Origin: Candidatus Zipacnadia bacterium
GTDB lineage: Bacteria; Armatimonadota; Zipacnadia; Zipacnadales; UBA5352
Reading direction: 5' to 3'
Length of the DNA: 64,000 nucleotides
Assembly (NCBI GenBank): GCA_029820295.1
Contig: JALGVA010000002.1
Coordinates: forward strand, 1 to 64,000
Within the stretch, counting starts at the first letter, position 1. Each line of letters begins with the position of its first letter. This document shows, in pieces, positions 44,921-45,550 of the stretch. Below the pieces are notes generated by a model, which was not told where the DNA came from, did not search any database, and saw only the letters and a program-made list of their open reading frames with translations. The position numbers and the translations under genes were made by a program.

Positions 44921-45028
44921 CCACCCCTGCGCCAACGCATCGGGTCAGGCGGGTGTGGATCCGGAATGTGAGTATGAGCGACGGGCGACGCGGCGAGGAC
45001 GACAACGACCTCCTCCTCCGTCTCGATC

Positions 45029-45349
45029 CTATGCATTACCCACAAGTCGGGACGGCTGCGGCGAGGCCGCGGGATGGACAGGCAATGCGCCGCTTTGCAG
45101 TGCGGGGGAGTGACACCTGCGCGGCTGTGTTGCGCAGGCGTCAGGTTCCATGCAAGAGCCCCATGGCTTCTGTTGGGAGTTCGCTGCGCGAAGTCCATCC
45201 CGGCCCGCGCACGACGGCAGCGCCAACGGCACACGACGCAACCGCCGGGCTGGCATGGAAGCTGAGGCGCTGGAGCGCCTCACCCTCCGTACGACAACGA
45301 CGTACGGCCCAGACGTACCGAGCGTGTACGACATGTGCGTGATGCATAG
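45029..45349. mobile_element. MITE-like non-autonomous element with TIRs and 9-bp direct repeats
   Basis: TIR CTATGCATTACCCACAAGTCG vs inverted CTATGCATCACGCACATGTCG (18/21); flanking GTCTCGATC at 45020-45028 and 45350-45358; no transposase ORF. Confidence 0.7.
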
Positions 45350-45550
45350 GTCTCGATCCCGCGCGACCGCAGACGACCCGGTCGCAGGCAGGAGGGGGCT
45401 TGCGCTACGTCGCGTATACTGCCACTCCGGCGCAGGTCGATCAGGCAACGCCGGTCCCCACGCATGTCTGTGTGCGCTATCACCATGCGTGATTGTGGGT
45501 CACTTGCGCCTTGCGGTGAACGCCGTGCCACGGTGCCACGGGCGACCGGA

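What the first reader, a model, noticed from the sequence alone, without database searches (positions are those of the whole stretch)
45020..45358. MITE-like element: 21-bp TIRs with a perfect 9-bp target-site-like duplication
Seen directly: GTCTCGATC occurs at 45020-45028 and 45350-45358, exactly abutting CTATGCATTACCCACAAGTCG (45029-45049) and the inverted CGACATGTGCGTGATGCATAG (45329-45349), 18/21 identical. Together these are hallmarks of DNA transposition. The 321-bp interior has no transposase ORF. I know no family with this terminus, so it may be an undescribed non-autonomous element.
Basis: partly seen in the sequence, partly recalled or inferred. Interest (0 to 1): 0.8.

Follow-up and report, generated by a model that had tools for sequence, protein, structure and literature searches.

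The report
Tn5-like miniature transposon in WS1 bacteria
This is one copy of a small, gene-less jumping-DNA family that is spread through a group of uncultured WS1/Armatimonadota-type bacteria and very probably moved by enzymes related to the Tn5 transposase; such elements are a known kind, but this family, and the string of changeable hairpins it carries, does not seem to have been described.

Summary
The 321-bp element (45029-45349) has 18/21 TIRs and a perfect 9-bp flanking duplication. It is a real, dispersed MITE, not chance. Its own genome holds many TIR-bearing copies, and relatives in the same bacterial family hold more. Across 27 paired copies, flanking identity rises clearly above background at 9 and 10 bp only. 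The joined flanks align without gaps at the insertion point to four uninterrupted paralogous sites in the same genome, so empty sites exist. Five copies sit at the same position of that outer repeat, in both orientations.

Both ends match the published IS50-subgroup (IS4 family, Tn5) end consensus 7/7. A search prompted by that resemblance found Tn5-type transposase genes bounded by the same or near-same ends: in G001 (same genus), at G009 contig ends (same family) and in G026 (same order). None was found in the window's own genome.

Best reading: a new non-autonomous family mobilised in trans by IS50-type transposases, a new member of a known kind. The less ordinary part is the interior: a dispersed structured repeat whose hairpins keep position but change sequence. 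It also occurs without TIRs; its function is unknown.

The parts
45020..45028 (+). left copy of the 9-bp target-site duplication GTCTCGATC
   Evidence: present once in the aligned empty paralogues C130, C19, C203, C146
45029..45049 (+). left terminal inverted repeat CTATGCATTACCCACAAGTCG, IS50-type end ('AAGT' end)
   Evidence: 7/7 to the IS50-subgroup end consensus
45050..45328 (.). interior: no transposase; string of hairpins that makes up a dispersed structured repeat
45111..45143 (+). interior hairpin TGACACCTGCGC...GCGCAGGCGTCA
   Evidence: I6; the same module elsewhere in the genome (query 90-132)
45154..45196 (+). two further interior hairpins (AGAGCCCCATGGCTTCT and GGAGTTCGCTGCGCGAAGTCC)
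   Evidence: sequence and fold
45193..45207 (+). one arm of the central inverted repeat (GTCCATCCCGGCCCG, type B arm)
45247..45264 (-). other arm of the central inverted repeat (CAGCTTCCATGCCAGCCC, type A arm)
45263..45282 (+). interior hairpin TGAGGCGC-TGGA-GCGCCTCA, next to the unit edge CCCTCCGTACG (45283-45293)
45329..45349 (-). right terminal inverted repeat CTATGCATCACGCACATGTCG; corresponds to the 'ATCTCG' end of other copies, the kind of end where transposase genes of IS relatives stop
45350..45358 (+). right copy of the 9-bp target-site duplication GTCTCGATC
44950..45452 (+). flanking host sequence: an older dispersed repeat into which the element inserted (44950-45028 joined to 45359-45452)

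Best explanation
The feature is a MITE: a 321-bp non-autonomous DNA transposon that inserted into a copy of another dispersed intergenic repeat and duplicated 9 bp of target. Its ends are IS50-type ends of the IS4 family. A transposase of the Tn5/IS50 type, encoded by a full-length IS with the same ends, would bind the two ~19-bp TIRs, cut the element out with DDE chemistry and join it to staggered cuts 9 (sometimes 10) bp apart at palindromic, G/C-bounded targets such as CCGTTCCGG. Shown here: TIRs, TSDs, copy number, empty sites, repeated insertion at one site in both orientations, and IS relatives whose ends match and whose transposase genes stop inside the right TIR. Inferred: that the IS50-type transposase actually moves this family, the cut-and-paste chemistry, and that the source IS was lost from, or not binned with, this genome.
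For: Multicopy in the own genome: 38 blast matches, six of them covering at least 259 of 339 bases at 84-100% identity; 38 TIR-core hits against 4 in the reversed-pattern control. Present in G001, G005, G003 and G009. TSDs: 27 pairs, 9-bp flank identity 0.588 against 0.300 for mismatched flank pairs, 44% against 1.9% reaching 7/9; 10-bp 30% against 1.1%; lengths 6, 7, 8, 11 and 12 near background. Empty paralogues align with the joined flanks at 84, 84, 82 and 77% with no gap at the insertion point. Five copies sit at the same position of that repeat, three in one orientation and two in the other. Both ends match the IS50 consensus CW------Y---CA-A--W- 7/7, chance 2e-4 per window position. PF14706 search: G001 (IS with ends CTTGTCATTACCCACAT...) and G007. 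G009 contig ends: CTATGCATTACGCACATCT runs straight into a Tn5-type C-terminus ending ...GDVRNA*, and the other end runs into a start codon MASSSAQQWA. G026: CTATGCATTACCCACATCT before a Tn5-type N-terminus. Many IS4/Tn5-type transposases end DVGNA or DVRNA, as TIR-encoded C-termini would. Tn5 transposase structures match P0001 at 1.4e-32.
Against: No transposase of this type was found in the window's own genome. Similarity between MITE and IS is confined to about 20 bp at the ends, so the interior is not a simple internal deletion of a known IS. Some copies have 10-bp TSDs, against 8-9 bp listed for IS50.
Confidence: 0.92

Rival explanations
1. The element spread mainly as a passenger of the outer dispersed repeat, or by recombination, and the TIRs are incidental.
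For: The window copy and at least four others lie in the same outer repeat.
Against: Most paired copies lie in unrelated flanks with their own TSDs; the outer repeat occurs without the element; the five shared-site copies are in both orientations.
Confidence: 0.03
2. A MITE moved by a different DDE family that also gives 9-10 bp duplications (for example IS10, ISAs1 or IS256 types).
For: TSD length alone does not single out IS50.
Against: All seven fixed positions of the IS50 end consensus are met at both ends, and IS50-type genes with the same or near-same ends were found in the genus, family and order.
Confidence: 0.05
3. The TIRs and direct repeat are chance features of a hairpin-rich intergenic region.
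For: The region is GC-rich and full of inverted repeats.
Against: Recurrence in dozens of loci of several genomes with TSDs at two specific lengths only.
Confidence: 0.005
4. On the origin of the interior (compatible with the best explanation): the hairpin unit is an independent REP-like repeat that IS50-type elements use as a target, and the MITE arose when two TIRs came to flank one unit.
For: Units occur without recognisable TIRs; element targets such as CCTCCGTACGAC and CCTCCGTTCCGG resemble unit edges; the G007 IS sits at the edge of a unit.
Against: Units are abundant only in genomes that have the TIR family; some TIR-poor units keep eroded TIRs, so many may be old MITE relics.
Confidence: 0.35

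Closest known systems
IS50/Tn5 subgroup of the IS4 family (PMC2266710)
   Same: End consensus 7/7, 9-bp duplication, palindromic targets with G/C at the ends; the relatives' transposases carry PF14706, PF01609 and PF02281
   Different: No transposase inside; about 320 bp instead of 1350-1550 bp; end letters differ from Tn5 OE and ME (about 12/19 and 13/19 identical, Tn5 ends from memory); some copies show 10-bp duplications
Prokaryotic MITEs in general (reviewed in PMC10969869, e.g. QMITE2, Chunjie)
   Same: Short, TIRs, TSDs, multicopy, no transposase, intergenic copies, size variants and copies that have lost TIRs and resemble REPs
   Different: IS4/IS50-type ends, a clade of uncultured WS1/Armatimonadota-type bacteria, and an interior of hairpins whose sequences differ from copy to copy
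REP elements as targets of IS, including IS4-family ISRm22 (PMC1525189)
   Same: Insertion at palindromic intergenic repeats with G/C at the ends of the duplication
   Different: Here the palindromic unit is also inside the mobile element; the units are longer, with two arm types and side hairpins

Membership tests
MITE (non-autonomous DNA transposon) | Short element with terminal inverted repeats | tested here: met
   321 bp, 18/21 TIR; other paired copies 146-712 bp
MITE (non-autonomous DNA transposon) | Target-site duplications | tested here: met
   9- and 10-bp flank identity far above mismatched-flank controls, other lengths not
MITE (non-autonomous DNA transposon) | Dispersed in multiple copies, with empty sites | tested here: met
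MITE (non-autonomous DNA transposon) | No transposase gene | tested here: met
   No Pfam match in the two longest overlapping ORFs
MITE (non-autonomous DNA transposon) | Mobilised in trans by an IS with the same ends | tested here: inconclusive
   IS with the same or near-same ends found in relatives; none found in the own genome; no activity assay possible
IS50 subgroup of IS4 family (as source of the ends) | End consensus CW------Y---CA-A--W- | tested here: met
   7/7 at both window ends, and at eight ends of four IS relatives
IS50 subgroup of IS4 family (as source of the ends) | Direct repeat of 8-9 bp | tested here: met
   9 bp in the window copy and most G000/G001 pairs; a subset has 10 bp
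IS50 subgroup of IS4 family (as source of the ends) | Tn5-type transposase with DNA-binding, DDE and dimerisation domains | tested here: met
   In IS relatives, not in the MITE: P0001 has PF14706, PF01609, PF02281, NF033590, Tn5 structures 1.4e-32
IS50 subgroup of IS4 family (as an autonomous IS) | 1350-1550 bp element with its own transposase | tested here: not met
   The window element is 321 bp without a transposase, so it is a derivative with such ends, not an IS50 element
Rfam RNA families (for the hairpin interior) | Match to a curated covariance model | tested here: not met
   No match for the whole window at gathering scores or for 44900-45500 at E up to 1

The most novel reading that the evidence does not exclude
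The interior is a structured unit under selection for its hairpins, not for their sequence: conserved edges (GGAGGGGC... and CAGSTTCCATSCCGGCCC) bracket hairpins that are replaced whole while pairing is kept, with or without transposon ends. The MITE would then be a vehicle for a functional RNA or DNA structure, for example one that binds a protein, ends or stabilises transcripts, or helps transposition.
Probability: 0.3. Interest if true: 0.6.

Novelty: new member of a known kind. Interest (0 to 1): 0.38.

Why it matters
It adds an IS50/Tn5-type MITE family in an uncultured clade, with a likely transposase source, length-specific duplications and visible empty sites, so trans-mobilisation could be tested with a well-understood enzyme type. 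The repeats also appear to break the assemblies of these genomes: many copies lie at contig ends. The hairpin units that keep pairing while changing sequence are a concrete case for asking whether MITE interiors carry function.

Tried and rejected
Rfam: nothing, even at permissive thresholds. Plasmid and phage collections: no match to the element. A Tn5-type transposase in the own genome: none. A long autonomous pair in the fetched copies: the longest TIR pair is 712 bp. The nine genome contigs relatives of P0001: apart from the G007 record itself (L196), the loci examined (L197-L201) showed no TIRs of this type. Chance and passenger spread were rejected on copy number, TSDs, empty sites and orientation. 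Two literature searches for an IS50-derived bacterial MITE gave nothing specific; the held library lacks most subscription papers and ISfinder was not available.

Full report
Observation. The element including both TIRs is 321 bp (45029-45349); the stretch between the TIRs is 279 bp. The two longest overlapping ORFs have no Pfam match. The element is intergenic: to its left is a GFO/IDH/MocA oxidoreductase gene (ORF 43760-44935, minus strand), to its right a 414-aa minus-strand ORF without a Pfam match (45551-46795).

Copies. The window is G000:C270:1-64000 of a 5.63-Mb, 331-contig assembly. A DNA search of that genome gives 38 matches, six of them covering at least 259 of 339 bases at 84-100% identity. 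The 16-bp TIR core with up to 3 mismatches gives 38 hits against 4 for the reversed control. Many copies lie within a few hundred bases of a contig end, as expected when repeats break an assembly. Of 61 genomes searched, six have DNA matches, all in the same bacterial family: full or long matches in G000, G001 and G005, short interior matches in G003, G007 and G009. TIR hits are numerous in G001 (53), G003 (21, mostly CTATGCATTACGCACA) and G009 (16). G007 is recorded as 'candidate division WS1 bacterium'; some database relatives of its transposase are labelled Armatimonadota. The window's own species name was not obtained.

Transposition hallmarks. In 27 paired copies the flanks were compared at lengths 5 to 12 and against mismatched flank pairs. 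Identity is 0.588 against 0.300 at 9 bp and 0.459 against 0.300 at 10 bp; at 6, 7, 8, 11 and 12 bp it is at or near background. Examples are perfect 9-bp pairs in L149, L155 and L163 and perfect 10-bp pairs in L115 and L168. The 10-bp duplications belong mostly to G003 copies, one G009 copy and one G000 subfamily (L168-L170). The joined flanks of the window copy align without a gap at the insertion point to G000 C130, C19, C203 and C146 (84, 84, 82, 77%), which are therefore empty paralogous sites of an outer dispersed repeat. Read, three copies (L001, L021, L002) and two copies (L006, L013) occupy the same position of this repeat in opposite orientations, so the position was hit several times.

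Targets. In 112 distinct outer flanks 20.5% match CCGKNMCGG fully against 0.1% of random positions, and 27.7% against 1.1% at 8 of 9. The motif was read from these same flanks, so these figures describe the preference and are not an independent test; flanks from the two ends of one copy are also not independent. Palindromic targets with G/C at the ends are reported for Tn5 (PMC1525189).

Which transposase. From memory the ends resembled Tn5 OE and ME; that was used only as a lead. The published IS50-subgroup consensus CW------Y---CA-A--W- with 8-9 bp repeats (PMC2266710) is met 7/7 by both window ends; 13 of 63,980 window positions meet it. A PF14706 search of 21 genomes hit only G001 and G007. 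The G001 IS (L189) has ends CTTGTCATTACCCACATTTT / CTTGTCATTACCCACATCTC, identical to the MITE type over CATTACCCACA and different at the tip; the assembly has a run of N inside its gene. The G007 IS (L188) has CTAGCC... ends and a 462-aa transposase, P0001, whose stop codon is the tip of the right TIR. In G009, contig ends carry CTATGCATTACGCACATCT followed directly by the C-terminus ...WRGILRLHDLVTGFLLASGDVRNA*, and other contig ends carry CTATGCATTACGCACATTT followed by the start of such a gene. In G026, of the same order, CTATGCATTACCCACATCT stands before a Tn5-type N-terminus and CTATACATTACCCACATCT after a ...DVGNV* C-terminus. Among 120 database homologues many end DVGNA or DVRNA, which is what CTATGCATTACCCACATC and CTATGCATTACGCACATC encode when read inverted; the DNA behind those database proteins was not seen. 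P0001 is IS4 family by NCBIfam, has the Tn5 dimerisation domain and matches Tn5 transposase structures at 1.4e-32, with the DDE-region residues aligned.

Interior. The interior shares nothing visible with the IS beyond the ends. It is a copy of a structured repeat: an edge GTACGGAGGGGC, one or two hairpins, an arm CAGSTTCCATSCCGGCCC, a loop region, and the mirror image. The arm pattern with up to 1 mismatch has 47 hits in G000, 38 in G001, 32 in G005, 26 in G003, 9 in G009 and 7 in G007, with no more than three in any other of the 61 genomes and controls at zero apart from one hit. Segments between edge and arm fold well beyond shuffles: mean z -3.17 (31 with a TIR within 130 bp) and -3.28 (25 without), against -0.14 for 168 random segments of equal length from the same loci; 52 of 56 end in a perfect stem of at least 5 bp, with 32 different arm sequences. 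Caveats: shuffles kept base composition only; the segments come from a selected set of loci and are partly related; 'without TIR' was judged on one side only and so includes some half-seen TIR-bearing copies such as L003 and L004; a free search over loop sizes favours finding stems. So hairpin content is well supported; selection for it is a hypothesis.

Verdict. A real MITE family with IS50-type ends, probably moved in trans by Tn5-like transposases of the same clade. New as a family as far as these tools show, ordinary in kind. The hairpin units are the part worth following.

Noticed in passing
window 45050-45328; G000, G001, G003, G005, G007, G009: Dispersed structured repeat with conserved edges and arms and hairpins whose sequence changes while pairing is kept; occurs with and without TIRs, and its abundance roughly follows that of the TIR family across genomes.
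   Followed up: partly
window 44950-45028 and 45359-45452; G000 C130, C19, C203, C146 and others: A second dispersed intergenic repeat family (28 blast matches in G000) that serves as an insertion hot spot; its own nature and boundaries were not worked out.
   Followed up: partly
L181 (G000:C201:45741-45905) and L144 (G005:C113:24450-24614): 165-bp copies with near-identical flanks in two genera, so the same insertion is either shared by descent or exchanged; the gene context was not compared.
   Followed up: no
L188 (G007:C520), start of the IS at 711: The complete G007 IS50-type element sits at the edge of a hairpin unit (CCCCTCCGAACGAC next to the TIR).
   Followed up: no
G000 C75, C96, C182, C304, C89, C35, C43, C180: Many copies lie at contig ends, so this repeat family probably limits assembly of these genomes.
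   Followed up: partly
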